A stretch of DNA of 64,000 nt from Clostridium sp. (GTDB lineage: Bacteria > Bacillota > Clostridia > Clostridiales > Clostridiaceae). Below, one piece after another: positions 1 through 12,514 of the stretch. How positions within the stretch are numbered: position 1 is the first letter of the stretch; each line of letters begins with the position of its first letter. The stretch is from the NCBI RefSeq assembly GCF_021372645.1, contig NZ_JAJFUC010000053.1, positions 1 to 64,000 of the forward strand. The letters are read 5' to 3'. The translations under genes were made by a program, and so were the position numbers. The notes below the pieces were generated by a model, which was not told where the DNA came from, did no database searches, and worked only from the letters and a program-made list of their open reading frames with translations.

Positions 1-68
1 CCTTGCTCTGTTACTAATTTTATTATTTCCATCTTGTATTCTACTGAAAATTTCTTTCTTTTAGTCAT
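1..68 (-). CDS. IS3-family transposase OrfA, N-terminal fragment
   Basis: Partial reading frame of 22 codons, cut by the window edge. It begins MTKRKKFSVEYKMEIIKLV followed by TEQG. This matches the start of the HTH (Transposase_8 / InsE-like) domain of IS3-family OrfA, which binds the IS ends; OrfB would supply the DDE catalytic domain. The start is ATG at 68, preceded by AAGGATG about 10 nt upstream. Seen directly: start, SD and N-terminal sequence. Known of the family: OrfA and OrfB are normally joined by -1 frameshifting. Whether the element is intact cannot be judged here. Confidence 0.75.
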   Translation of the reverse strand, partial: MTKRKKFSVEYKMEIIKLVTEQ

Positions 69-145
69 TTGATTAACACATCCTTATCTGTACTTATTAT
101 ACATACTTTTCTATGTGTCTATCAAATAGGGTATACTCCACCTCA
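1..145 (-). mobile_element. Left-edge fragment of an IS3-family insertion sequence
   Basis: The window opens inside an insertion sequence whose transposase OrfA begins at 68 and runs off the edge. Upstream of OrfA the minus strand reads TGAGGTGGAGTATACC (revcomp of about 130-145). Its position and its TG start are what one expects of an IS3-type terminal inverted repeat, so I place the element end near 145. That boundary is inferred: the other terminus and any target duplication lie outside the window. Confidence 0.55.
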
Positions 146-824: not shown

Positions 825-3344
825 TTATAGCATGCTAAGTTTTTCCATTATTTTTTTCTTTATATAACTATTAATTTTTAAAGATTTAATATCTAGTGCT
901 TTAAGCTCACTTCTTATTTTATCAGGCTCCTCGCTGAATATGTAATTTGATAAACTTATTGCACCTTCTCTAAATATTCCCAAATACATTAATTCTAATG
1001 TCGTCTTTTTTGATGCTCCAAATTCTAGATATAAGGAGTAATTACATAACTTTTCTATATATAACTCCCCACCATTCAATTTAAGAACTTCCTTTAATAT
1101 TTCTTGGTATGCATAAAGATATTTATTTATAGTAAATCGTATCTCTTCATTTAAAAATCCCAATCTATCTTGTATCTTTTCATTTATCTCACTGGATGTA
1201 TACTCACTTGGACTAAAATCATAAAATATTATCTCTCTAATATTCTTTTCCCTCATCCACTTGAGGCCTGTTATCTTTATTGCATTTAATTGTTTATCTG
1301 TATATTTACCATTAAAAAATATTTTATTTATTCCTCCTAGAATAATTCCAAATCTTTTATCAGCTTCTTCAAAAAATGGATTTAGCAAGAAATATAATTC
1401 TATACTATTATAATTTTTTATAAATGTATTCCATAATATATTTATTGCTACAATATCAATTCCAACTAGTCTTTTTAATAATTCTTTCGGAGCTTCATTA
1501 TTATTAATTTTTTCTGCTAAAATAGAATCTATCTCTAGAATATCATTGCTTTTATCTAAATATTTTTCCACTATATTTTGTCCATCAATTTTTTCTAAAA
1601 GTAAGATACTTTCAAGATTTTCATTACATACTATTACCTCTTTATTATTTCTATTAACTTTTATAGTCTCTTTATTTTCTATATACGACTTAAATTGGTT
1701 CAATTCTTCACTTATCATTTTATTTTTTTTAAATTCTATGTCTTCTATCTTTCTTCTTGCATAATTTGAATTATACCAATCAGATTTAAAATTAATACAA
1801 ATTATATTTCCACATAAGTCATTATTCATTCTTCCTGCCCTACCAGAAAGATTCCAAAATTCCAAATTTGATAAAAATTCCGTATTTTTCTTAGGATTAT
1901 ATATGTATATATTATTTGCTTGTACATTAATACCCTCCAGCAGAGTAGATGTACATGATATTATTTTTAATTTTCCATCCTTAGCTAAATCCTCCACTCC
2001 ATTTTTTATTATACTTGGAAGCTTGCTATAATGATATGCTACCCCACGTTGTATTAAATCAGCCAAATCGTATTCTTCACATATATATTTCTTTAAGAAG
2101 TCACTAAACTCATCTAATTCTATAATGTTTAATTTAGGAAAATTTTTCTGCTTAGCTAATTTATTTGATATTTTCCTTGTACTACTTGGTATATTACAAT
2201 ATATAATAGAATTTTCATCATTGTTAAATTTATTTATTACATATGCTATTCTATCTTCTAAACGACGAAAGCTTTTACTTCTATATTCAAAGCTGCTTAT
2301 AGTCTTATCTTTATATTTTATCTTGATATCAGAATCTTTACTATCTTCTTCTAGTGTTATTACATTCTGATTTACTGTTGATAGTTTTTCATGTCTGTAA
2401 TACGTATTTTCCAACTCAAATCTTTTAATAAATACTTCTGGATTTTCAATTAACGGACTTACAAAAAATATTTTTATATTTCTCCATAATTGTTTAGCTC
2501 TTTTTATTGTATATTCTAACAATATTCCCCTAGCACCTTCTGCTATCTGTTGAGCTTCATCAACTATTAATAAATCTAAAATCAAGTTAAACTCACTAGC
2601 ATTACTGCATAATTGATTTAATCTTTCTTGAGTCAAAATAAATATCACTTTATTTTCTACCATTTCATCATTTAGTTCAGATGAGCACGTTACAAATATT
2701 CTCTCATCTAAATTTAGGCTTACTATCTCATTTTGTATATCATTCATAACCTCATTAATTAATGCTCGTGTTGGAACTATGTACACTATTTTTCTAGTTT
2801 GTGTATTAACTAGTTGGTCTATAATTATTTTTTTCATCAAAAATGATTTTCCTATTGATGTGGGGGCTGATATACTGATATTTTTTACATTCTTTAGTGC
2901 ATTACTTGTTGATAATTGGAACCTATTTAATATTTCTTTTTTCCCCGCAAAATTCTTCGAAAAAAACTCTTTTTTATATAATTCTTCAAATAAAGAAATT
3001 CCCTTATAATGTACTAAATTTTTATCATATCCTTTTCTTTTTCTTAAAACATTTTCAAATGTAAATATAGTTAAATTTGATAATATATTATTACATTTTA
3101 TTAATATCTTATTATCTTCACTAACGCTTGATATTATAGTAGCATATCTTAAAGCCAGCTTTTGATATAAAAACTTTTCAGAAAATGACATTATATTAGC
3201 TAGCCCAAGCCCTATCTTCATTTCATCCGCATTAATTTCAGAATTAACATTTAACTTTAAAAATTCTTTCTTTATATATACTCTTGTATACTTATCTACT
3301 AACATATTGACTAATAACAAGTCTGATTCTTTTAATATAATCAT
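825..3344 (-). CDS. Ski2-like superfamily 2 helicase, putative defence protein
   Basis: 839-aa DExH/D-box ATPase expected to translocate on or unwind nucleic acid. Visible motifs: Walker A SAPTSIGKS (159-167), Ia YIVPTRALI (188-196), Walker B with DEAQ (262-265), a Ski2-type AYHYSKLP (436-443), motif V STLLEGINVQA (466-476) and motif VI NLSGRAGR (498-505). Residues 510-839 match no domain I recognise. The start overlaps the 19-bp gap after the protease gene, so the two are translationally close. It is the last gene of a three-gene unit with an MBL-fold protein and a trypsin-like protease. Known: Hachiman HamB is a helicase of this broad class, and Avs1 pairs MBL and trypsin-like proteins with a STAND ATPase. 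Inference: the helicase is the sensor or motor of a defence system. A lone repair helicase is the alternative. Confidence 0.75.
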   Translation of the reverse strand: MIILKESDLLLVNMLVDKYTRVYIKKEFLKLNVNSEINADEMKIGLGLANIMSFSEKFLYQKLALRYATIISSVSEDNKILIKCNNILSNLTIFTFENVLRKRKGYDKNLVHYKGISLFEELYKKEFFSKNFAGKKEILNRFQLSTSNALKNVKNISISAPTSIGKSFLMKKIIIDQLVNTQTRKIVYIVPTRALINEVMNDIQNEIVSLNLDERIFVTCSSELNDEMVENKVIFILTQERLNQLCSNASEFNLILDLLIVDEAQQIAEGARGILLEYTIKRAKQLWRNIKIFFVSPLIENPEVFIKRFELENTYYRHEKLSTVNQNVITLEEDSKDSDIKIKYKDKTISSFEYRSKSFRRLEDRIAYVINKFNNDENSIIYCNIPSSTRKISNKLAKQKNFPKLNIIELDEFSDFLKKYICEEYDLADLIQRGVAYHYSKLPSIIKNGVEDLAKDGKLKIISCTSTLLEGINVQANNIYIYNPKKNTEFLSNLEFWNLSGRAGRMNNDLCGNIICINFKSDWYNSNYARRKIEDIEFKKNKMISEELNQFKSYIENKETIKVNRNNKEVIVCNENLESILLLEKIDGQNIVEKYLDKSNDILEIDSILAEKINNNEAPKELLKRLVGIDIVAINILWNTFIKNYNSIELYFLLNPFFEEADKRFGIILGGINKIFFNGKYTDKQLNAIKITGLKWMREKNIREIIFYDFSPSEYTSSEINEKIQDRLGFLNEEIRFTINKYLYAYQEILKEVLKLNGGELYIEKLCNYSLYLEFGASKKTTLELMYLGIFREGAISLSNYIFSEEPDKIRSELKALDIKSLKINSYIKKKIMEKLSML

Positions 3345-3363
3345 TATATAACACCCATTATTT

Positions 3364-4848
3364 CTAAATATTTTCTATAGTTCTTATATCTGATATTGGC
3401 AATACAAATAAATTTACATTTATATCTCCTATGTTATTACTTAATCTTACTAATCCATTATATTTATTCTCATCATCAGTGATTTTTTTCGTAAACGTAT
3501 CTGTAAAATATTTAATTATTCTTTTTTCATTATTTATTATACAAGGAATATTTTCATATATTTTGCTATTATATACAACTAATGCAGTTATATCAATATC
3601 AACATTCCCCTTATACTCATTTCTAGTTATCCTCCCAATTTCTACTTGTGATTTGTAATCTAAACACTCAACTGCTTTTCCATCCCATTCTATTCCTGTG
3701 AGTTCCACAAAGTTATTCTTGTCTCTTATCCCTATGGAATTTATTAAATTTTCTAAAGAGAGAAATAAATCTTCATAAACTGAGATGATTGGAATTAATA
3801 ACTTAATTCCTTTTTCACCTTTTTTAAAATATATATCCTCTTCATAATATTGGCACTCCTTTTCTACTAAAACTTTTCCTATTTTAGGAGCATTAATAAT
3901 TCCTTCTGATAACATCCACAATATAATATAAGCACTATTAAAATTGCAATTCATTCTGGCTTTAACTTTCTCTATTCTTTTATGCATATTTTCTATATAC
4001 TTTATACTAGGTAACTCATTATTTTCTAAAGAATATCTTTCATCATAAGTCAAAGCATATTCTCCTATTGCATTGTTTATCTCATCTAAATATTTTTTTG
4101 TATTTATAGTTCCATGTCCTTCCACCTTAAAAAAACTTATCCTAAAATCTATATTTTCATTTTCAAACTCATGGAATGAATGATAATATAGTTCATTACA
4201 TAGCTTCTCATTTTCTATCAATCTTTTACTCAATTGTAACGAAAACTGTTTTTGAGGAATGTTTTCTATCAGCTCCATTCTATTGTGTTCTACTAGATAA
4301 TTTATTATTTTATTAAACGAAATGACCTTGATTCTTGTTTTCACACCATCTCCACCATAATTTCTTATAGCCATCCCAAGTATATATTTTCCCGAATAAA
4401 CCGCTCCACCCGATACTCCATTCCATTTAGCTCTATCCTCCTGATTTTCAATCATGAATAGATTATCTCCAATCTCCCCGTTTAAATCATCATATTTTTC
4501 AAGTTTAAGTTGAACTCCTACTACCTCCCCCGTCTCTTTATTGTATTTATATCCATAGGCAAATAATTTTTCCTCTGTTATACACTCTGTTGATATTTCT
4601 GGTATGTAGCTTATAGGAATTTCCTCTGTTAATATAATTTCTGCTAAATCCAAATCTGGGATTCTATTAACCGATTCAAAAAAGTATTTTTTCCCAAAAT
4701 CATTCCTATATTCTACATAGCAATCATCATAGCTAGTTAGCTCTTTAAAATTGTGATTTGCTGTATATAATATATTTTTTTTAATAAGAAATGCCGTTCC
4801 TAAAACTTTTTCAGCCTTGAACAACTTACATACAAATGAATAATCCAT
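3364..4848 (-). CDS. Trypsin-like serine protease with large unassigned C-terminal region
   Basis: 494 aa. The N-terminal ~190 residues look like a chymotrypsin-fold protease: His32 in TANHNF, Asp67 in DLDLA, and Ser146 in GVSGGAV form a complete catalytic triad in the right order and spacing. There is no signal peptide, so it should act in the cytoplasm. Residues ~200-490 are unassigned: an alpha-helical stretch (~215-375) followed by a beta-rich end. It sits 12 bp after the MBL gene and 19 bp before the helicase. In Avs1-type systems a cytoplasmic trypsin-like protein pairs with an MBL protein, which supports an effector role. The C-terminal part could be an adaptor to the helicase, in the position HamA has in Hachiman. 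That is inference; I see no convincing HamA nuclease motif. Confidence 0.72.
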   Translation of the reverse strand: MDYSFVCKLFKAEKVLGTAFLIKKNILYTANHNFKELTSYDDCYVEYRNDFGKKYFFESVNRIPDLDLAEIILTEEIPISYIPEISTECITEEKLFAYGYKYNKETGEVVGVQLKLEKYDDLNGEIGDNLFMIENQEDRAKWNGVSGGAVYSGKYILGMAIRNYGGDGVKTRIKVISFNKIINYLVEHNRMELIENIPQKQFSLQLSKRLIENEKLCNELYYHSFHEFENENIDFRISFFKVEGHGTINTKKYLDEINNAIGEYALTYDERYSLENNELPSIKYIENMHKRIEKVKARMNCNFNSAYIILWMLSEGIINAPKIGKVLVEKECQYYEEDIYFKKGEKGIKLLIPIISVYEDLFLSLENLINSIGIRDKNNFVELTGIEWDGKAVECLDYKSQVEIGRITRNEYKGNVDIDITALVVYNSKIYENIPCIINNEKRIIKYFTDTFTKKITDDENKYNGLVRLSNNIGDINVNLFVLPISDIRTIENI

Positions 4849-4860
4849 ATCTTGTCCTTC

Positions 4861-6039
4861 CTATATGTTTATATTGAGTATTTCTTCGCTTTCCGCAGAA
4901 GCTGGCATATTAATGATATATTTATACTTTTCTTTAAGTTGAATTTTATCTAGCTCTCGTAATATTTCACAATTTCTATAATTAAATAAAATTTCTTTCA
5001 TACTAGTTTGCTTAACTATTACTTTGCATAAGCATTCTAGGTTTGGATGATTATACCTATCTCCATTAGTAGATATAACATATTTTTTCGAACTAAATAA
5101 ATCAAAAAATTTTGAAGAAATATTGTATTTGCTACCATGATGACTTAATTTAACCAAATCAAAATCAATCTTTTTCAACTCATTATCTTCTACATATTTC
5201 CCAAGGCTCTTCTTAATATCGCTCGAATTAGAATCTCCTAAAAATAACATTTTCTTTCCTCCCACTTCTATAAAAAAAGCTATTGAAGCATTATTAGCTG
5301 GATTTGACTTGTTAAATTCTAGTTTTGCTAACTCTTCTATTTGTATTTCTCCTATACAACAATCTTCATCAAAAACCTCACTACTATCTTCGCTATTTAT
5401 ATAGTAATTGTAGAATTTATTCATTGTTTTATTATCAATAACTAGACCATCACTCTCTATTTCTAACTCATCACACCACTCTTCAAAAAGTTTGTTTATT
5501 CTTTGGGACTTAGGAGATAATAGCACAAACTTTATTGAATCATTAATAGGATACACTTCTTTGTAGAGCTGTTTTTCACATTGTACAACAACTTCATCCT
5601 TATTCCAAACATCTCGGTGCTTACTTTTTAAGATGTAATTCGCTAAAATCTTTGCGCTCTCATATGATACTTCTTCATCAAAAATGCTCTTATTAGACTC
5701 TTCTTTTTCGTTTGACTCTAAGACTATATCATGTTTATATTTTCCTTCAGTAATTTTATATAAATCATTAAACCATATATTACCAATATCGATTTTTTGC
5801 ATAATCTCTTTATCTTTAAACAGCTCTACCGCTCCACCTATATGGTCATCATCTATATGAGTAAGTACTATCAAATCAATCTTTTTAATAGACTCTAACT
5901 CTTTCTTTATAAAATTTTTATATGTATCTACTAACCCACAGTCAATCAGGATATTATACTCTTCCTTATCTTGTGATATTGTTAATAAAAAACTTTCCCC
6001 ATAACTCGCTGGAAAACACTTAATTGCAACACTACACAT
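4861..6039 (-). CDS. Metallo-beta-lactamase-fold hydrolase (ComEC/Rec2-like)
   Basis: 392 aa, first gene of the operon. Metal-binding motifs are intact: THIDDDHIGG (60-69), a later Asp in FLGDSN, and SHHGS. These match the MBL branch related to the ComEC C-terminal domain, which acts on nucleic acid or phosphoester substrates. There are no membrane segments, unlike ComEC itself. The SD AGGAAGG lies just before the ATG. MBL proteins of this type head the Avs1 defence operons, so the likely role is as effector nuclease or hydrolase. A substrate cannot be named from sequence. The insert between the HxDDDH and GDS motifs is unusually long and acidic. Confidence 0.75.
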   Translation of the reverse strand: MCSVAIKCFPASYGESFLLTISQDKEEYNILIDCGLVDTYKNFIKKELESIKKIDLIVLTHIDDDHIGGAVELFKDKEIMQKIDIGNIWFNDLYKITEGKYKHDIVLESNEKEESNKSIFDEEVSYESAKILANYILKSKHRDVWNKDEVVVQCEKQLYKEVYPINDSIKFVLLSPKSQRINKLFEEWCDELEIESDGLVIDNKTMNKFYNYYINSEDSSEVFDEDCCIGEIQIEELAKLEFNKSNPANNASIAFFIEVGGKKMLFLGDSNSSDIKKSLGKYVEDNELKKIDFDLVKLSHHGSKYNISSKFFDLFSSKKYVISTNGDRYNHPNLECLCKVIVKQTSMKEILFNYRNCEILRELDKIQLKEKYKYIINMPASAESEEILNINI

Positions 6040-6077
6040 TTTTACTACCTTCCTACAATTCTTATATTTTTATATTT

Positions 6078-6105
6078 ATTATAGCATAAATAGTATATTA
6101 TTGAA
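6078..6105 (-). promoter_or_regulatory. Candidate promoter of the MBL-protease-helicase operon
   Basis: On the minus strand TGCTATAAT (6086-6078) is an extended -10 element. TTCAAT (6105-6100) lies 16 bp upstream as a weak -35. It sits about 40 bp before the MBL start codon. This is a pattern match only. Confidence 0.45.
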
Positions 6106-6258
6106 TTATTTTGTAACTACTTAAAACTTTTCCAATAAAAATACTTCACTATTCCACCTATTAATAATTACTAAATACCTCGTTGCAATTCTTACTAAAA
6201 ATTTAATCACTAAAAAATATAATTATTATATAACTTTCTAGTTGTTTAGAAACAAAAT

Positions 6259-6317
6259 ATTAGCACCAAATTTAACTATATAACTATTACTGTTATATAC
6301 CTAAAATTGGTGCTAAT
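6259..6317 (-). terminator. Long hairpin, probable terminator of the 334-aa gene
   Basis: ATTAGCACCAA (6259-6269) pairs perfectly with TTGGTGCTAAT (6307-6317). A second inner stem, TATATAAC with GTTATATA, extends it. A T-rich run follows on both strands, so it may end transcription in either direction. It lies ~95 bases past the stop of the 6411-7415 gene and insulates it from the MBL operon. The remaining ~150 bases on the MBL side show nothing beyond the promoter. Confidence 0.6.
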
Positions 6318-6410
6318 CTATAATTTTTCATCTCAAAATTTATTATATATTTTCTAAAAATACATTACATTTATTATTTTGCACTAGCTACAATGACCTT
6401 AAAACATAAA

Positions 6411-7415
6411 TTAATTACTAACTTTTTTAGGTGCTTCTTTAATTTGTTTTCTAGTCTTAGATGAAATAACAGTTTTAGCAACTTCTTTTCCATCTTCAAT
6501 ATAATTGTCTTTTGCTCTAGTTCCTTCTTTAATTTTCTCTTTTTCTATTAAATCATCATATAAGGGAATTACTAATTCATCCAATTCATCTAAAAACTTA
6601 GCATCCACATCAATTGCTTTTATCTCTATTTTAGAATAAATACTATCTAAGATAGATTGATTTAAATTTGATTTTAACTCCATTGCCCTACGTTTTCCTA
6701 ATTCCTTAATAACAAATTCCTTAGATGAAGTAATGTTATACGCAAAAAAGCTTGAATATATTCCATGCATTTTAAACTTATAGTTTAAATTTTTATAGAA
6801 TGCCATTCTTAGAGTTGTATTTTTCAGCTTATATAAATCTTTAAGATTATCTATCTTCATTCCTTCCATGGTTTGGTTTTGCAATTCTATGAATAAAGCT
6901 TTTTCTTCTTGAGTTGCTTCTCTTGTTTCTATATCATATAAACCTTCTTTTTTAGGTGTTCCATCTTCATTATTCTCAAGAAATACTTGTACATTTATAA
7001 ATAAAATATATTCTAACAATATTAATCCTTTACTTTTCAAACCATTTAATGCTCTTTTTATATATCCAGAATTAGTATTATTAGTTAAAGATAATATCTC
7101 CGACACAATATCTTCTTCAATATTCAATGTATAGGCAATGTCTTCAATGTTGTAGAAATAATTATTATTAACCATTCCGCAATCCCCCATTAAATTACGC
7201 GTAGTAATTATTATATTATTCCTATTAGCTCTAGCTAATTTATCTAACACCAATAACTGAATATCATTTTGTAATTGACTCTGTGATAGTTGGTTAATTA
7301 TTTGCATTTGTGTATATATTTCTTTTATTATATATTTGCCTCGAGATTTTCGTAGCTTAGAATATTTGCAATATACAGCTAATTCCTCAAATTGCCCCTT
7401 TTTGCCATTCGACAT
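6411..7415 (-). CDS. Unrecognised 334-aa protein, plasmid- or phage-like
   Basis: I do not recognise this protein. It is soluble, lysine-rich and mostly helical, with a basic N-terminus and a very charged C-terminal ~60 residues. The segment around residues 100-140 (NIEEDIVSEILSL followed by SGYIKRALNGLKSKGLI) resembles a winged-helix-like stretch as found in plasmid or phage replication and partition proteins, but no diagnostic motif is present. The SD is weak. It is preceded by two mini-ORFs (7455-7520 and 7616-7678) and, divergently, by a promoter-terminator pair, a layout reminiscent of plasmid replication control. DNA-binding or replication function is a guess. Confidence 0.55.
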   Translation of the reverse strand: MSNGKKGQFEELAVYCKYSKLRKSRGKYIIKEIYTQMQIINQLSQSQLQNDIQLLVLDKLARANRNNIIITTRNLMGDCGMVNNNYFYNIEDIAYTLNIEEDIVSEILSLTNNTNSGYIKRALNGLKSKGLILLEYILFINVQVFLENNEDGTPKKEGLYDIETREATQEEKALFIELQNQTMEGMKIDNLKDLYKLKNTTLRMAFYKNLNYKFKMHGIYSSFFAYNITSSKEFVIKELGKRRAMELKSNLNQSILDSIYSKIEIKAIDVDAKFLDELDELVIPLYDDLIEKEKIKEGTRAKDNYIEDGKEVAKTVISSKTRKQIKEAPKKVSN

Positions 7416-7454
7416 TCCAGAATAGTATTTGTTAAATAACCTTAAATCACATAG

Positions 7455-7520
7455 CTATTTATACGTATATTCCTTATTTAATTCTAATTTCTTTAATACT
7501 TCTAAATTAATCTTATCCAT
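7455..7520 (-). CDS. 21-aa mini-ORF with strong SD
   Basis: MDKINLEVLKKLELNKEY followed by TYK and a stop. A strong SD, GAAGGAG, sits 9 nt before the ATG. It ends 39 bases upstream of the 334-aa gene on the same strand. It may be a leader peptide for that gene or the surviving 5' end of a truncated gene. The SD and spacing are seen directly; the function is unknown. Confidence 0.4.
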   Translation of the reverse strand: MDKINLEVLKKLELNKEYTYK

Positions 7521-7615
7521 TTTTATTTCTCCTTCGTAAATTTAATAATTTTATCTTTTGTAAATATTAGTTTTGAAGAGAGTATATAACTCATCATCAA
7601 CTTCTTGACTTAATT

Positions 7616-7678
7616 TTAACTACTATCCATATAACTCCACGGCCTTAGTCTTTCTTTGTAAATCACTTGTTTCCCCAT
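7616..7678 (-). CDS. 20-aa mini-ORF with SD, probable remnant
   Basis: MGKQVIYKERLRPWSYMDSS then stop, with AGAAAGGA about 9 nt before the ATG. In the next frame the reading continues as LKLSQEVDDELYTLF, then KTNIYKR and stop. The pair therefore looks like a short gene broken by a one-base frameshift. It lies upstream of the other mini-ORF and the 334-aa gene, in the same direction. Confidence 0.35.
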   Translation of the reverse strand: MGKQVIYKERLRPWSYMDSS

Positions 7679-7725
7679 TATCTTATTTCCTTTCTAAAAT
7701 AATTCTTAACGTTAAATAATTTTAC

Positions 7726-7754
7726 TTGACAGTAAGTTAGTATTAACTTATTAT
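7726..7754 (+). promoter_or_regulatory. Near-consensus plus-strand promoter with operator-like dyad
   Basis: TTGACA (7726-7731), 17-bp spacer, TATTAT (7749-7754). The spacer contains AAGTTA (7734-7739) and TAACTT (7744-7749), a dyad that would suit a repressor. It points away from the mini-ORFs into a stretch with no protein gene, where a terminator hairpin follows ~120 bases on. Confidence 0.6.
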
Positions 7755-7760
7755 ATATAA

Positions 7761-7905
7761 TATAGGATATAATTGAGATATCGTATGAACTAGCCAAGTA
7801 AAATCTAATATAACATAATTTAAAGCATTACTCAAAGTTCAAATATGGTTAAATTTAGATATTATTCACGTTTAGATATAAACATCTTTTTATATCTATT
7901 TTTTT
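7761..7905 (+). ncRNA. Candidate ~145-nt small RNA
   Basis: The segment runs from the expected start of the 7726-7754 promoter to a Rho-independent terminator: TAGATATAAA (7873-7882), 6-nt loop, TTTATATCTA (7889-7898), then seven T. The only ATG frame (7845) lacks an SD and runs through the terminator, so a non-coding transcript is the simplest reading. If the minus-strand unit starts far enough upstream, this RNA would be antisense to its leader, as in plasmid copy-number control. The existence of the RNA is inferred from promoter and terminator only. Confidence 0.4.
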
Positions 7906-8307
7906 GTTCTATTTACTTCCATTTTCTCCAGAATAACATATCTATTGATATACATTTTTCAATATAAAATCTTGGTTTTAAGATATCTTCGTTTACGATA
8001 AATCGCTAGTATTTACTTAACTATTTCAATTATTCAAAATGTATGTAATAGTAACTTTTTTTTACAATTTGTGTATGTTTATGTACTCAACCATAAAATT
8101 TGAACAATATATTTTTATCGTCAATAAATTTTCAATGGTGTAATTATCAAGGTGTGAACGCCTCATATCAACTACGTAGAACTTTTCAAAACGTAACCAA
8201 GAGCCCCTATAAGCTTTTAACAGACCAAAAACTAGTCAAATTATAAATGTTCTTATATACTATCTTAAAACGAAAACAATAGTAATTTTAAGTTTTAAAA
8301 CAAAAGA
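7906..8307. other. Gene-free stretch
   Basis: About 400 bases with no supported gene on either strand. It holds only small dyads such as CTACGTAG near 8174 and GGTG-TGAA-CGCC near 8151. AT content is like that of the neighbours. I see no repeat array or origin-like iterons. Confidence 0.5.
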
Positions 8308-8333
8308 GAAGAGGATAAACACTACTCCTCTTC
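8308..8333 (-). terminator. Terminator of the Ntn-hydrolase / membrane-protein unit
   Basis: GAAGAGGA (8308-8315) pairs with TCCTCTTC (8326-8333). The minus strand continues TCTTTTGTTTT. It lies 9 bases past the stop of the membrane protein. Confidence 0.7.
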
Positions 8334-8341
8334 AATATTAC

Positions 8342-9271
8342 TTATACACTTATTCTATTGTTTTCTCTGTCAATACTAAATGACTTATAATTATGAATCA
8401 ATTCTTGTACCTCTTTCTTATTTCTTACATAACTTCTCATTATATTACTACGTTCAATAAAGCAATTTATCCTTTTAATATTTATATTGCAAAAAATTAT
8501 AATTCTCACTTTTAAAAAGAATCTAATTCTATCATCAATTGTTTTTTTCAAACTTACTCTAGCAAATAGTTGTTCATAACTTGCATAAATACATGATAAG
8601 TAAATATATAGCATAAACATACATGAAAGTATTACAGGTAATGAAATATCTTTAATTTTATCTTTTACTATAATGCTACTTATGTTTATAACAATTTCTC
8701 TAATTGAATAGAATAACATGTACAATCCTATAAAACTCTGAATTATAGTTAAGAGTTTCTTTAACTTTTTACTATTTTGGTTCTGAAGCTCTTCATTTTT
8801 ATCAAGAAAGACTATAAATAATGTTAAAATTGTCATGCCTATCATTAAAACAACTTCTACAATAAATGAAAAAGTATATAAATTTAATATAAATTGAAGA
8901 ATTATCATTAACCTTATATTACTTTTAAGGTGCTTTTTAAAGTAACTAAAATCTTTTGCTGTTCCAATAGCTTTACCGCACCAAATTAATCCAATGGTAA
9001 CGAACCATACAATTGTATCTTTTAAAAGCCTCTTTTCCCAATATCCACATTTAATTAATATAAATACTATTCCCAAATAATATACTACCATTGTTATATA
9101 CCAAATAATTAATTTTTTCTCTAATGCACACTTAATAATATTAAACAGCGATACTCTAGTATCTTTTTTTAATAAAATATAGATAAGAAACATCGAAATC
9201 CAAAAAGCAGTTGCAAGCTCCCTATTATTAAATGTTTCATTTAAATAAACAAAGACATTACTAATATTCAT
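8342..9271 (-). CDS. Multi-pass membrane protein paired with Ntn-hydrolase
   Basis: 309 aa, unrecognised. About seven hydrophobic segments are spread over residues 15-235 (near 18-35, 52-75, 82-100, 118-135, 137-157, 172-200 and 208-230), followed by a basic cytoplasmic tail of ~75 residues. The SD GAGGAG lies before the ATG. It is the second gene after the Ntn-hydrolase, with a 142-bp gap and a shared terminator, so co-transcription is likely. By analogy with defence pairs, a membrane effector released or modified by a cytoplasmic enzyme is possible, but that is speculation. A plain transport or polymer function cannot be excluded. Confidence 0.55.
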   Translation of the reverse strand: MNISNVFVYLNETFNNRELATAFWISMFLIYILLKKDTRVSLFNIIKCALEKKLIIWYITMVVYYLGIVFILIKCGYWEKRLLKDTIVWFVTIGLIWCGKAIGTAKDFSYFKKHLKSNIRLMIILQFILNLYTFSFIVEVVLMIGMTILTLFIVFLDKNEELQNQNSKKLKKLLTIIQSFIGLYMLFYSIREIVINISSIIVKDKIKDISLPVILSCMFMLYIYLSCIYASYEQLFARVSLKKTIDDRIRFFLKVRIIIFCNINIKRINCFIERSNIMRSYVRNKKEVQELIHNYKSFSIDRENNRISV

Positions 9272-9366
9272 AACTCTCTTCTCCTCTTGTAATGTTAGCT
9301 TATATTCAATTTTTTCCGCTACACACTTATGATACCATATTTTATTAAAATAAAAGAAGATTATTT

Positions 9367-9471
9367 CTAACCTTCTACAAGAACTTTTATATATTTATCT
9401 AAAGTTGGCCTGCTTATATTGCACATTTTGGCATAGTCTGTTTTGCTAATAATGTTCCATAGAAACCATTT
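9367..9471 (-). other. HTH-like tail in the -1 frame of the Ntn-hydrolase gene
   Basis: In the -1 frame at the 3' end of the Ntn-hydrolase gene, 34 codons (9471 down to 9370, stop TAG at 9367-9369) encode KWFLWNIISKTDYAKM then CNISRPTLDKYIKVLVEG. The core AKMCNISRPTLDKYI is a typical helix-turn-helix of the Hin/resolvase type. The switch point is T_TTA_AAA (9477-9471) in the zero frame, a canonical -1 slippery heptamer. Either the tail is added by programmed frameshifting or the gene carries a frameshift. The alternative is a leftover of another gene. Confidence 0.5.
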
Positions 9472-10946
9472 TTTAAATCAGAAACATTAATTATAAATGC
9501 ATTATTATATTTATCAAAGAAATCATCCATATTATAACCTGAAATTACTTTTTTATAATTATTTTGTTTCACCACACAAAATAAATATTTTTCAAACTCA
9601 TCTGGAATCATTTGTTTCATGAAATTATTTACTATTGCTTCTAAATTTAAATTTTCCATCTTAAAAGCCCTAAATGGTTCATATAGATTTATTTTTTCTT
9701 CAACAGCATCACAGAAATACTGATAATCTATCAACACTAAATTGTGGTATTCATTTATTACTTTTTTTATTGGAGTTATAAGTGAAATATCATAACCAGG
9801 ATATTGTCCAATACTAAAATCAAAATCCATATCCTCATGTTTAGCTTGTTGTAAAATATCCTCTTCATTACACTGTTCTAGAATTTCTTTATGAGAAATA
9901 TATTTAGTTGGTATAACTTGCATTTCCGATAATGCTGGTATTCTTTCATTATGACTATCAAATTGTATAAAATGTTTTTTAAAGTCAGGACGAAATGTAT
10001 ATGCATAATCTGTTTCTTCATTACCACGTCTTATATATCTTCTAAAATGGATATTATGTACACAACTATTAACATTCATAAAATAAATCACATTATATTT
10101 TCTACTATAAAAAACATAATAAAAAGCATTCTTTGTATCAAGTGACTTTATAATTCCTTTTCTTAAATATAGATCCTCCCAAATTTTTGTATCAGTTATA
10201 CTATTAAGCATATATCTTTTTTTACCATCTATATCAGATGATGAAAAAACACTATTATTTCTAACTATAACCGATATTGCTTTACATTGACTTATGTCAT
10301 CATCAACTAAATAATATTCAATATCTCTAAACCATTTTAATGTATTATTAAGCAAAATCCCTGATAGCGTACCTCCAACTCCATATTTAAAAATATCATT
10401 TTTTAGAATATAACATTGACTACAGGCAATTATCATTGATAGATAGTATTCCTTTTCAAACTTACTAGAATATAACCCATTTACTATTCCCTTCATATCA
10501 TCCGACAAGAAATGTATACTTTTTCCACTACCAATTTCAGCATAATCACACTCACTAAAACTCCCCTCCGAAAATAAGTATATATGATTATCATCTTGAC
10601 CTTTCGAAAAAATAAAAATCATTTCTACATCGTATTTATCATAACTGTTTTCAATACTTTTCAATATAGTATCTATTTCAGATATATTCATTTCATAAAT
10701 ACATTGATATACTCTTTGTATGATTTCAAGAGCAGCATCAACATTTCCCGAATATGATATAGCCAAATTCGGAGATACTTTATAAATTTTTAACACCCCT
10801 TCTTGTATGTAGTGTTTTCCATACAATCCTTGTACCTCTCCAAATGAATTAGTAGTAGATTCTAATTCATTTGTCTTTTCAGATACTGCTGTATCAGCAA
10901 TCATATATACACTCTTTTCTTTTTTCCAAGCTAAACAATAAGTCAT
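9414..10946 (-). CDS. Proteasome-like Ntn-hydrolase with long C-terminal domain
   Basis: 510 aa. After removal of Met1 the N-terminal residue is Thr2, and the start TYCLAWKKEKSVYMIADTAV has the pattern of proteasome beta / HslV subunits: nucleophile Thr2, Asp18 in IADTAVS, Lys53 in VLKIYKV, then SYSGNVDAA and later AEIGSGKS. These match the catalytic Thr/Asp/Lys and the Gly-rich core of the family. Residues ~250-510 are an unassigned extra region, so it is more than twice the length of HslV. The SD is AGAGGGGTGG. It is first in a two-gene unit with a membrane protein. Proteolytic or amidase activity is inferred from fold motifs. The zero-frame C-terminus replaces an HTH-like tail found in the -1 frame. 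Confidence 0.6.
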   Translation of the reverse strand: MTYCLAWKKEKSVYMIADTAVSEKTNELESTTNSFGEVQGLYGKHYIQEGVLKIYKVSPNLAISYSGNVDAALEIIQRVYQCIYEMNISEIDTILKSIENSYDKYDVEMIFIFSKGQDDNHIYLFSEGSFSECDYAEIGSGKSIHFLSDDMKGIVNGLYSSKFEKEYYLSMIIACSQCYILKNDIFKYGVGGTLSGILLNNTLKWFRDIEYYLVDDDISQCKAISVIVRNNSVFSSSDIDGKKRYMLNSITDTKIWEDLYLRKGIIKSLDTKNAFYYVFYSRKYNVIYFMNVNSCVHNIHFRRYIRRGNEETDYAYTFRPDFKKHFIQFDSHNERIPALSEMQVIPTKYISHKEILEQCNEEDILQQAKHEDMDFDFSIGQYPGYDISLITPIKKVINEYHNLVLIDYQYFCDAVEEKINLYEPFRAFKMENLNLEAIVNNFMKQMIPDEFEKYLFCVVKQNNYKKVISGYNMDDFFDKYNNAFIINVSDLKNGFYGTLLAKQTMPKCAI

Positions 10947-11503
10947 TTTACCACCCCTCTAATCATCACTTTGTTAATAATTTAAAGCATAATATCTCAT
11001 AGCTTCAATATTATAACATATTTATGTTTTACCATATCATTAATAAATTGAAAAGGCAATAGTTTAAATATTTATAAACATCATGGCACCAAATGTTTTT
11101 CATGTAGTGTCGCTTTATCACTCAATTTTTAATTAATATCTCCACTAACTCTAATCCTCTACCACCTCACCATAACTCCACAAACATGCTCTACATAAAG
11201 AACATAACAAATTCATGATTTTTCAAATTTTTAATTATTCTTCAAAAACATTTAGAATTTTTGCACTACTGCAATATATTATAATTAGCTCTTAACACGT
11301 ATTCTTTAGCATTTCTTGCCCGCTTTTAATTATATTGTAATTAAAAATCGCAATATACGTAAAATGATATTGTTATGATGCATAGCAATTAGTAAATATT
11401 CCAAATATTGTCTACCGTTCAACACCAATTTGAGATGAATATAAAATATATAAATCAATAATAATAAACTCTTCCTGCATATATTTATTAACACATTATG
11501 TAT
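10947..11503. other. Gene-free stretch between Ntn-hydrolase and recombinase
   Basis: About 560 bases with no supported gene. A minus-strand fragment near 11270-11320 reads KRARNAKEYVLRANYNILQ then stop, but it has an in-frame stop just upstream and no start. It is probably a relic or chance. The promoter of the Ntn-hydrolase unit should lie near 10970-11030, but I cannot pick a convincing one. Confidence 0.5.
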
Positions 11504-12514
11504 TTACCACTTCTTTATATTCTCTAAAGGACTATACTTCTGATATGCATTTCTCAAATCTTCATCAGACAAATCTAAATAAGCTTTCTCAGTAACAGTT
11601 ACAGAACTATGACCTAATAATCTTGATAATGTATAGATATCACCCTTAGAAGCTATTAGAAATCGTCTAGCAAAATTATTTCTTAGTGAGTGTGGTGTTA
11701 TATTCTTATTTAATCCTATTCTTAGCATATAACTCCTAAAGTTCCTTTCAAAATTAGATGCAGTAAGTATTCCATTTGTTCTTTGAGTTAGAAATAGTAA
11801 TTCAGTGCTTTGCATACTATCTTTAAATCTAAGCCATTTTTGTAGTATCTTGGCCATTAGTGGACTATAGAAAACTACTCTATCTTTTTTACCTTTATTA
11901 ATTTCCGCTGGTATTAGTATACTTCTTCTGTCTAAATCAACATCATTTATGGTTAAATTAATACATTCTGTCAATCTCATTCCTGTATCCAAAATTAGAT
12001 TTGTTATTACATAATCTCTATATTCATGGAATTTTGTTAAATCCATAGCTTTTATAAGAGCTTTCCATTCATCATCTGTTATTTGGTCTTTAGCTTTTCT
12101 TTTTACTTTTAAAAATTTTGCTTTTGATACAGTATTTGATTTTATAATTTGATTTTCTTCTAGCCAATTGAAAAATACTTTTATATTTCGTAGATAACAA
12201 TTTATAGTAACTGGACTAATCTCTTTCCCTAAATCTCTTCTATTTTGCTGAAAATTAATCTCTAAACTTTTGTCATTTGCAACATATGAATATTTTCCTC
12301 TTTCTTTAGTAAATTCCAAATATTCCTCTACAATGTTTTTATTAACTTCATCTACTTTCGATATTTGTTTTTCTTCTTCCAAATACTTAGCAAATAAAGC
12401 TAATGTTTGATAATAACTTTTTATAGTTTTAATTGACAGATTTTTAAGTTTACAATAATCTATAAAATCCTTAATATGAATTGTAAACTCCTTTTTGGTT
12501 TTAATTTTTGGCAT
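11504..12514 (-). CDS. Tyrosine recombinase / integrase
   Basis: 336-aa site-specific recombinase of the XerC/D-like class. An N-terminal SAM-like core-binding domain (about 10-125) is followed by the catalytic domain with all active residues: Arg180 (TGMRLTE), the Lys209/210 region, His275-x-x-Arg278 (HSLRNN), His302 (LLGHSS) and Tyr312. A strong SD, TAGGAGG, precedes the ATG. It stands alone, 170 bases past the 3' end of spo0A, at the border of the accessory island. It is probably the integrase that brought the island in, or a mobile-element relic that is still intact. It is not the chromosomal XerC/D pair, which would not normally sit beside spo0A. Confidence 0.85.
   Translation of the reverse strand: MPKIKTKKEFTIHIKDFIDYCKLKNLSIKTIKSYYQTLALFAKYLEEEKQISKVDEVNKNIVEEYLEFTKERGKYSYVANDKSLEINFQQNRRDLGKEISPVTINCYLRNIKVFFNWLEENQIIKSNTVSKAKFLKVKRKAKDQITDDEWKALIKAMDLTKFHEYRDYVITNLILDTGMRLTECINLTINDVDLDRRSILIPAEINKGKKDRVVFYSPLMAKILQKWLRFKDSMQSTELLFLTQRTNGILTASNFERNFRSYMLRIGLNKNITPHSLRNNFARRFLIASKGDIYTLSRLLGHSSVTVTEKAYLDLSDEDLRNAYQKYSPLENIKKW

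What the first reader, a model, noticed from the sequence alone, without database searches (positions are those of the whole stretch)
825..6039. MBL + trypsin-like protease + Ski2-like helicase operon: possible undescribed defence system
Three tightly spaced genes (12- and 19-bp gaps) with intact active sites: metal site HIDDDH/GDS/SHHGS, triad His32-Asp67-Ser146, and full helicase motifs. Known: Avs1 uses MBL and trypsin-like proteins with a STAND ATPase, and Hachiman uses a Ski2-like helicase (HamB) with HamA. This operon looks like Avs1 effectors on a Hachiman-like motor. The protease carries a ~290-residue extra region that may be the adaptor. It lies in an island with an IS end and an integrase.
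Basis: partly seen in the sequence, partly recalled or inferred. Interest (0 to 1): 0.85.

Follow-up and report, generated by a model that had tools for sequence, protein, structure and literature searches.

The report
Clostridial HamMAB: protease-unlocked nuclease defence
This three-gene set is a new member of HamMAB, a bacterial virus-defence system published in 2025, in which a protease is predicted to unlock a DNA-cutting enzyme by cutting it at two sites; new here is that the two predicted cut sites within such an enzyme resemble each other, in a form that differs between lineages.

Summary
In detail: three intact minus-strand genes (window 825-6039; gaps 12 and 19 bp) with MBL, trypsin-triad and helicase motifs. 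The helicase is full-length HamB (608.8 bits). The protease's extra ~290 residues are a diverged HamA domain, tied to canonical HamA through an intermediate, without the GExK nuclease motif (kept by 0 of 13 clade fusions). Five of 80 fetched genome loci have the same order; a HamB tree forces at least two changes of the fused state. New here: at the positions of the published cut-site isoleucines the window has Val124 and Cys227 (Cys in 22 of 22 clade proteins). Across 44 pro-nucleases below 50% identity, the two predicted sites of one protein resemble each other from P5 to P1' (0 of 20,000 shuffles), hardly outside. In 19 of 22 clade members both sites fit F-[DNSE]-x-x-[VIC]-[SGAC]; in 0 of 84 others. 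This predicts a lineage-specific recognition motif.

The parts
4861..6039 (-). HamM: MBL-fold predicted pro-nuclease, 392 aa
   Evidence: LmuA 259.6 bits, Avs1a 182.9 bits; NCBIfam Avs1a 242, below its cut-off 420; metal-site residues invariant in 22 of 22
5665..5682 (-). predicted gate 1 site FDEEV|S (residues 120-125, P1 = Val124)
   Evidence: aligned with I125 of L069 and I121 of L048; cleavage itself inferred
5356..5373 (-). predicted gate 2 site FDEDC|C (residues 223-228, P1 = Cys227)
   Evidence: aligned with I224 of L069 and V220 of L048; Cys in 22 of 22 clade MBLs; cleavage inferred
3364..4848 (-). protease-HamA fusion, 494 aa
   Evidence: trypsin-like part and HamA match; 12 other full-length relatives at 39-58% identity
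4249..4848 (-). trypsin-like protease domain (about residues 1-200), triad His32-Asp67-Ser146
   Evidence: RT-Protease_XI model residues 5-184; triad invariant in 13 of 13
3367..4233 (-). HamA-derived domain (residues 206-494)
   Evidence: HamA2 E=3.9e-5 at residues 226-323; linked through L004
3781..3792 (-). PIIS where canonical HamA has GExK
   Evidence: alignment with canonical HamA L112-L116
825..3344 (-). HamB: Ski2-like SF2 helicase, 839 aa
   Evidence: PDLC00186 608.8 bits over residues 14-837
1..140 (.). multi-copy repeat (IS-like) end at the contig edge; setting, not part of the system
11504..12514 (-). Xer-like tyrosine recombinase gene at the edge of the variable region; setting, not part of the system
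   Evidence: Phage_integrase 105.1 bits

Best explanation
[quoted passage not shown] Shown here: gene order, domains, intact catalytic motifs in HamM, protease and HamB, loss of GExK, and recurrence of the trio. Shown by others for the Pseudomonas fluorescens system (PMC12799240): cleavage of HamM after Ile118 and Ile218, DNase activation, phage defence, control by ATP hydrolysis; oligomerisation of the protease is their proposed trigger. Inferred here: that this copy works the same way, and that its cut sites are FDEEV|S and FDEDC|C, with Val and Cys in place of Ile, read by a protease whose recognition reaches back to P5.
For: HamB full length at 608.8 bits, HamA match in the fusion, LmuA/Avs1a-type MBL. 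Same order MBL, protease-HamA, HamB in 5 of 80 loci. GExK absent in 0-of-13-kept clade fusions, as the paper reports for virtually all fusions. Gate positions align with proteobacterial HamM whose Ile pair has the published spacing. The two predicted sites of one protein match each other from P5 to P1' across the family.
Against: No activity was tested. The clade's HamA domain is too diverged for a direct profile match to canonical HamA (hhalign probability 0.3; 3.0 with intermediates). Ile is at neither predicted site of the window, and Cys as P1 is not among the cleavages reported in the text I read. The best PDB match of HamB by sequence is an entry labelled DNA polymerase theta helicase domain (9wh1, 157.8 bits), ahead of AbpB (83.4) and HamB (52.9).
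Confidence: 0.88

Rival explanations
1. An undescribed system that merely resembles Avs1 and Hachiman.
For: PADLOC recognises the HamA part at only 21.3 bits, so its models do not clearly name the fusion as HamA.
Against: Gene order, fusion, MBL type and loss of GExK are as published for HamMAB.
Confidence: 0.03
2. The HamA domain is still the effector nuclease and the MBL-protease pair is accessory.
For: An Asp/Glu-rich stretch remains near the canonical Asp column, and the L004 fusion keeps GEGK.
Against: GExK is kept in 0 of 13 clade fusions; in P. fluorescens HamM and protease activity are both essential.
Confidence: 0.04
3. It is HamMAB, but only gate 1 (Val124) is cut; the conserved Cys227 has another role such as loop structure or metal contact.
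For: In EpiAvs one cut loop seemed enough. Cys227 is invariant in 22 of 22, as a structural residue would be.
Against: In P. fluorescens mutation of either site abolishes defence. P5-P2 of gate 2 match gate 1 in the same protein, and Cys, Ile and Val alternate in this column in 97 of 110 MBLs.
Confidence: 0.25
4. The set serves a mobile element or a general DNA-damage death response rather than phage defence.
For: It lies beside a repeat end and in a variable region; Hachiman responds to DNA damage.
Against: P. fluorescens HamMAB protects against phage. The fusion had no match among plasmid records, phage records or viral contigs at the sensitivities used.
Confidence: 0.07

Closest known systems
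HamMAB (nuclease-protease Hachiman), P. fluorescens, PMC12799240
   [quoted passage not shown] GExK lost; two gating loops.
   Different: Predicted P1 residues Val and Cys instead of Ile and Ile; HamB of a lineage apart from the two proteobacterial fused loci that I placed in the tree (L048, L069). PflHamMAB itself was not in the tree.
Canonical Hachiman (HamAB), PMC12278908 (passages seen)
   Same: HamB sensor helicase; HamA-derived domain.
   Different: Here HamA carries a protease and lacks GExK; an MBL gene is added.
Avs1 (AVAST type 1)
   Same: MBL of the Avs1a type and a trypsin-like protease.
   Different: No STAND NTPase family matched the 494-aa fusion.
Lamassu and DRT nuclease-protease variants
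   Same: The best PADLOC model for the MBL is named LmuA; the protease matches RT-Protease_XI; the RTasMBL model also hits the MBL.
   Different: No LmuA-type C-terminal part or reverse transcriptase was matched in the three genes.
AbpAB (PMC12278908 passage)
   Same: Fusion to an inactive HamA-like domain plus a Ski2-like helicase.
   Different: There the fused part is Cap4-like, here a protease with a separate MBL.

Membership tests
HamMAB | Order MBL, protease-HamA, HamB in one operon | tested here: met
   same order in 5 of 80 loci
HamMAB | HamB helicase with intact motifs | tested here: met
   608.8 bits; motifs
HamMAB | Trypsin-like domain with triad at the N-terminus of a HamA domain | tested here: met
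   HamA part diverged, linked through L004
HamMAB | HamA nuclease motif D-GEXK lost | tested here: met
   GExK kept in 0 of 13 clade fusions; the Asp column is ambiguous by one position
HamMAB | MBL with two extra loops, each holding a conserved candidate cut site | tested here: met
   both loops present where shorter MBLs have gaps; conserved columns
HamMAB | Ile as P1 at both sites (found in the characterised proteins; I do not take it as defining) | tested here: not met
   Val124 and Cys227; in 110 MBLs Ile at gate 1 in 70 and at gate 2 in 32
HamMAB | Proteolytic activation of the DNase and phage defence | not testable with these tools
   needs biochemistry and phage assays
HamMAB | Loops cover the active site in the fold | not tested
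Canonical Hachiman | HamA nuclease motif D-GEXK present | tested here: not met
Avs1 | STAND NTPase on the protease protein | tested here: not met
   no NTPase family matched the 494-aa fusion up to E=1

The most novel reading that the evidence does not exclude
Gated pro-nucleases carry a matched double lock: a six-residue recognition motif (P5 to P1') stands in both gating loops of one protein and changes in both together as lineages diverge. The clostridial clade has its own key, F-[DNSE]-x-x-[VIC]|[SGAC], so nuclease-protease pairs form lineage-specific lock-and-key sets that should not cross-activate.
Probability: 0.55. Interest if true: 0.5.

Novelty: new member of a known kind. Interest (0 to 1): 0.36.

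Why it matters
It places a protease-fused Hachiman in a Firmicutes lineage whose HamA domain is so diverged that PADLOC scores it at only 21 bits, so such systems may be under-counted. The matched-site pattern offers a sequence-only way to predict protease specificity in nuclease-protease defence pairs, and a testable explanation of how related pairs could stay insulated from one another in one cell.

Tried and rejected
The genome-contig scan with the fusion alignment confirmed no relative; the MBL alignment did. The fusion had no match in plasmid records, phage records or viral contigs, nor window 6050-11000 in plasmids. PDB: no match for the fusion at E<=1; the alignment's best was E=0.12, a chain named LPXTG-motif cell wall anchor domain protein; none for the MBL at E<=0.001.

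My first idea that the conserved Phe (F120, F223) was P1 was dropped: in the wider family the conserved pair is [IV][SG], four residues later. I noted at first that the integrase-like gene is not the island's own (note); after I regard this as open. A first hhalign of fused against canonical HamA gave probability 0.4. In the alignment the gate 2 column of L004 is mis-registered (its site as I read it is); left in. Of 204 MBLs collected, 94 shorter than 370 aa were left out of the gate counts, and 4 of the remaining 110 have a gap at gate 2. Representatives below 50% identity still share ancestry, so the shuffles are not strict probabilities. Control windows shifted by -8 and +8 gave 520 and 1,462 of 5,000 shuffles at or above the observed value; shifts of -4 and +4, which overlap the site, gave 0 and 18. 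P9 also showed an excess (z 2.5). The HamB tree has four long canonical branches and two incomplete fused rows (L003, L004).

Full report
What is there. Three minus-strand genes read in the order MBL (6039-4861), protease fusion (4848-3364), helicase (3344-825), with gaps of 12 and 19 bp and intact catalytic motifs. The helicase is HamB over its full length (PADLOC PDLC00186, 608.8 bits). The MBL matches the PADLOC models LmuA (259.6 bits), Avs1a (182.9) and RTasMBL (147.2); NCBIfam's Avs1a model scores 242, below its cut-off of 420. The middle protein has a trypsin-like N-terminal part (RT-Protease_XI, residues 5-184) and, at residues 226-323, a match to HamA2 (E=3.9e-5); HamA1 matches at 227-323 (E=4.7e-4).

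The 'adaptor' is HamA-derived. The clade's domain is far from canonical HamA: hhalign of the clade alone gave probability 0.3, with three intermediate sequences added 3.0. The link runs through the Caldalkalibacillus fusion L004: it matches the canonical model PDLC00163 at 63.9 bits over residues 207-493, canonical L154 at E=3e-7 and the window's domain at E=7e-7 (small subject sets). The clade against L002, L003 and L004 gave probability 99.1. Where five canonical HamA have GE[ASV]K, the 13 clade fusions have P[ILFV][IV][SAE]; L002, L003, L048 and L069 also lack GExK; L004 keeps GEGK. The aspartate column is ambiguous by one position.

It is a published system. Tuck et al. (Science 2025, PMC12799240; I read parts 1-3 and 6 of 6 and passages found by term, not parts 4-5 or the supplements) describe this arrangement: HamM, protease-HamA and HamB. 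About 5% of Hachiman systems carry the fusion; D-GEXK is absent in virtually all fusions; the protease cuts P. fluorescens HamM after I118 and I218, on two insertions, which makes HamM a potent DNase. EpiAvs1a cut-site mutants are I134K and I234K. The main text as held has no occurrence of 'Clostridi', 'Bacillota' or 'cysteine'. Of my four paper searches, the term HamMAB was used in one, which listed this paper alone. Other papers were seen as listings only, except passages of PMC12278908.

Recurrence. The MBL alignment found 107 relatives in genome contigs, of which the best 80 were kept. In 17 of the 80 an ORF next to the MBL matches my protease model, and in 5 the trio stands in the same order: L002 Clostridium aestuarii (full-length frames), L003 Clostridium sp. 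OS1-26 (frames of the fusion and of HamB interrupted), L004 Caldalkalibacillus (HamB cut by the contig end), L048 Chimaeribacter and L069 Psychrobacter. Other neighbours include proteins matching LmuA (L005, L026), protease proteins of about 1,720 aa, Avs1-like in size (L006, L007, L009), a protease-NACHT-pentapeptide protein (L014) and a protease next to an NB-ARC protein (L041). Nine of the 12 non-window fusion proteins have the same longest-contig length as a clade MBL, which suggests shared contigs. Of 147 related genomes searched, only the window's own has the fusion.

Lineages. In a HamB tree of 16 rows the window groups with L002, L003 and L004 (99/99), apart from L048 and L069 (100/100); at least two changes of the fused state are forced, in line with the paper's multiple fusions. 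Two canonical clostridial relatives, L154 and L155, keep GEAK next to a HamB of 846-852 aa.

Cut sites. I did not have the PflHamM sequence. I anchored the gates on proteobacterial HamM: L069 I125/I224 and L048 I121/V220, spacing 99 against 100 in the two published proteins. The window residues there are Val124 and Cys227, spacing 103. In 110 MBLs of at least 370 aa (of 204 collected), gate 1 is I 70, V 34, A 3, T 2, L 1; gate 2 is C 48, I 32, V 17, A 4, S 2, T 1, M 1, L 1, gap 4. P1' is S, G or T in 109 of 110 at gate 1 and 98 of 106 at gate 2. In the window's clade Cys227 is invariant in 22 of 22 and gate 1 is V 16, I 5, T 1.

Matched sites. Both six-residue windows could be read in 106 of the 110. 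With one representative per group below 50% identity (44), the mean BLOSUM62 score between the two sites of the same protein was 9.43 against 3.31 shuffled; leaving out P1 and P1', 5.09 against -0.15 (sd 0.64). No shuffle of 20,000 reached either. The same held for 65 representatives below 70% and 23 below 40%, and, for P5-P1', for 37 without the window's clade. By position the excess lies at P5 (z 4.7), P4 (5.8), P3 (4.3), P2 (2.6), P1 (3.0) and P1' (2.2). Outside, z runs from -1.1 to 1.8, except P9 (2.5). Without the clade the pattern is weaker: P4 3.5, P3 3.5, P1 2.9, P2 2.3, P5 2.2, P1' 1.9, and P9 3.2. In the clade both sites have F at P5 in 20 of 22 and fit F-[DNSE]-x-x-[VIC]-[SGAC] in 19 of 22; among the 84 others none does either. 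I read this as the footprint of one protease recognising both sites, with specificity differing between lineages. That is inferred; shared ancestry and the choice of columns by alignment are its limits.

Setting. The window starts at a contig end in a repeat whose six other near-exact copies also lie at contig ends. DNA likeness to three related genomes stops at window 11325, 11511 and 11550, at or just past the 3' end of the integrase-like gene. A near-full-length homologue of that gene at 51% identity or more is present in 14 of 59 genomes of the genus, own included; in the 13 others I listed the ORFs downstream and they differ widely. Of 80 ORFs chosen from these 13 regions some match PADLOC methylases and others (132 families at E<=1e-5; matches per ORF not returned). 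So the spot is variable and in places holds defence-like genes; enrichment was not measured. The names Spo0A and SpoIVB for the genes beyond the integrase are recalled, not from a call.

Verdict. An intact-looking member of a known system, with one pattern worth testing.

Noticed in passing
window 11325-12514; L123-L125, L141-L150: A Xer-like recombinase gene sits at the edge of a region whose ORFs differ among 13 related genomes, some with methylase, HNH or other PADLOC-matching genes: a candidate integration hotspot.
   Followed up: partly
window 1-140: Repeat end with six other near-exact copies, all at contig ends; it probably broke the assembly, so the far side of the island is not seen.
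   Followed up: partly
L014:8022-12465: Brevibacillus dissolubilis: gated-type MBL followed by a 1,094-aa protein with trypsin-like, NACHT-like (below Pfam's cut-off) and pentapeptide-repeat parts, perhaps a further nuclease-protease partner.
   Followed up: partly
L041:7977-12353: Leptospiraceae MAG: MBL, a 300-aa protease and an NB-ARC protein as three adjacent genes, so the protease looks unfused.
   Followed up: partly
L003:9213-13162: Clostridium sp. OS1-26: the trio is present but the frames of the fusion and of HamB are interrupted.
   Followed up: partly
window 9414-10946: 510-aa protein with a weak proteasome-beta-like match (18.1 bits, cut-off 224); weak relatives in 5 of 67 other genus genomes, best 32% identity. 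Function unknown.
   Followed up: partly
window 825-3344: The best PDB sequence match of HamB (157.8 bits) is an 853-residue chain labelled DNA polymerase theta helicase domain (9wh1, 9whk, 9whu), far above the other polymerase theta entries (about 50 bits); the label may hide a closer relative.
   Followed up: no
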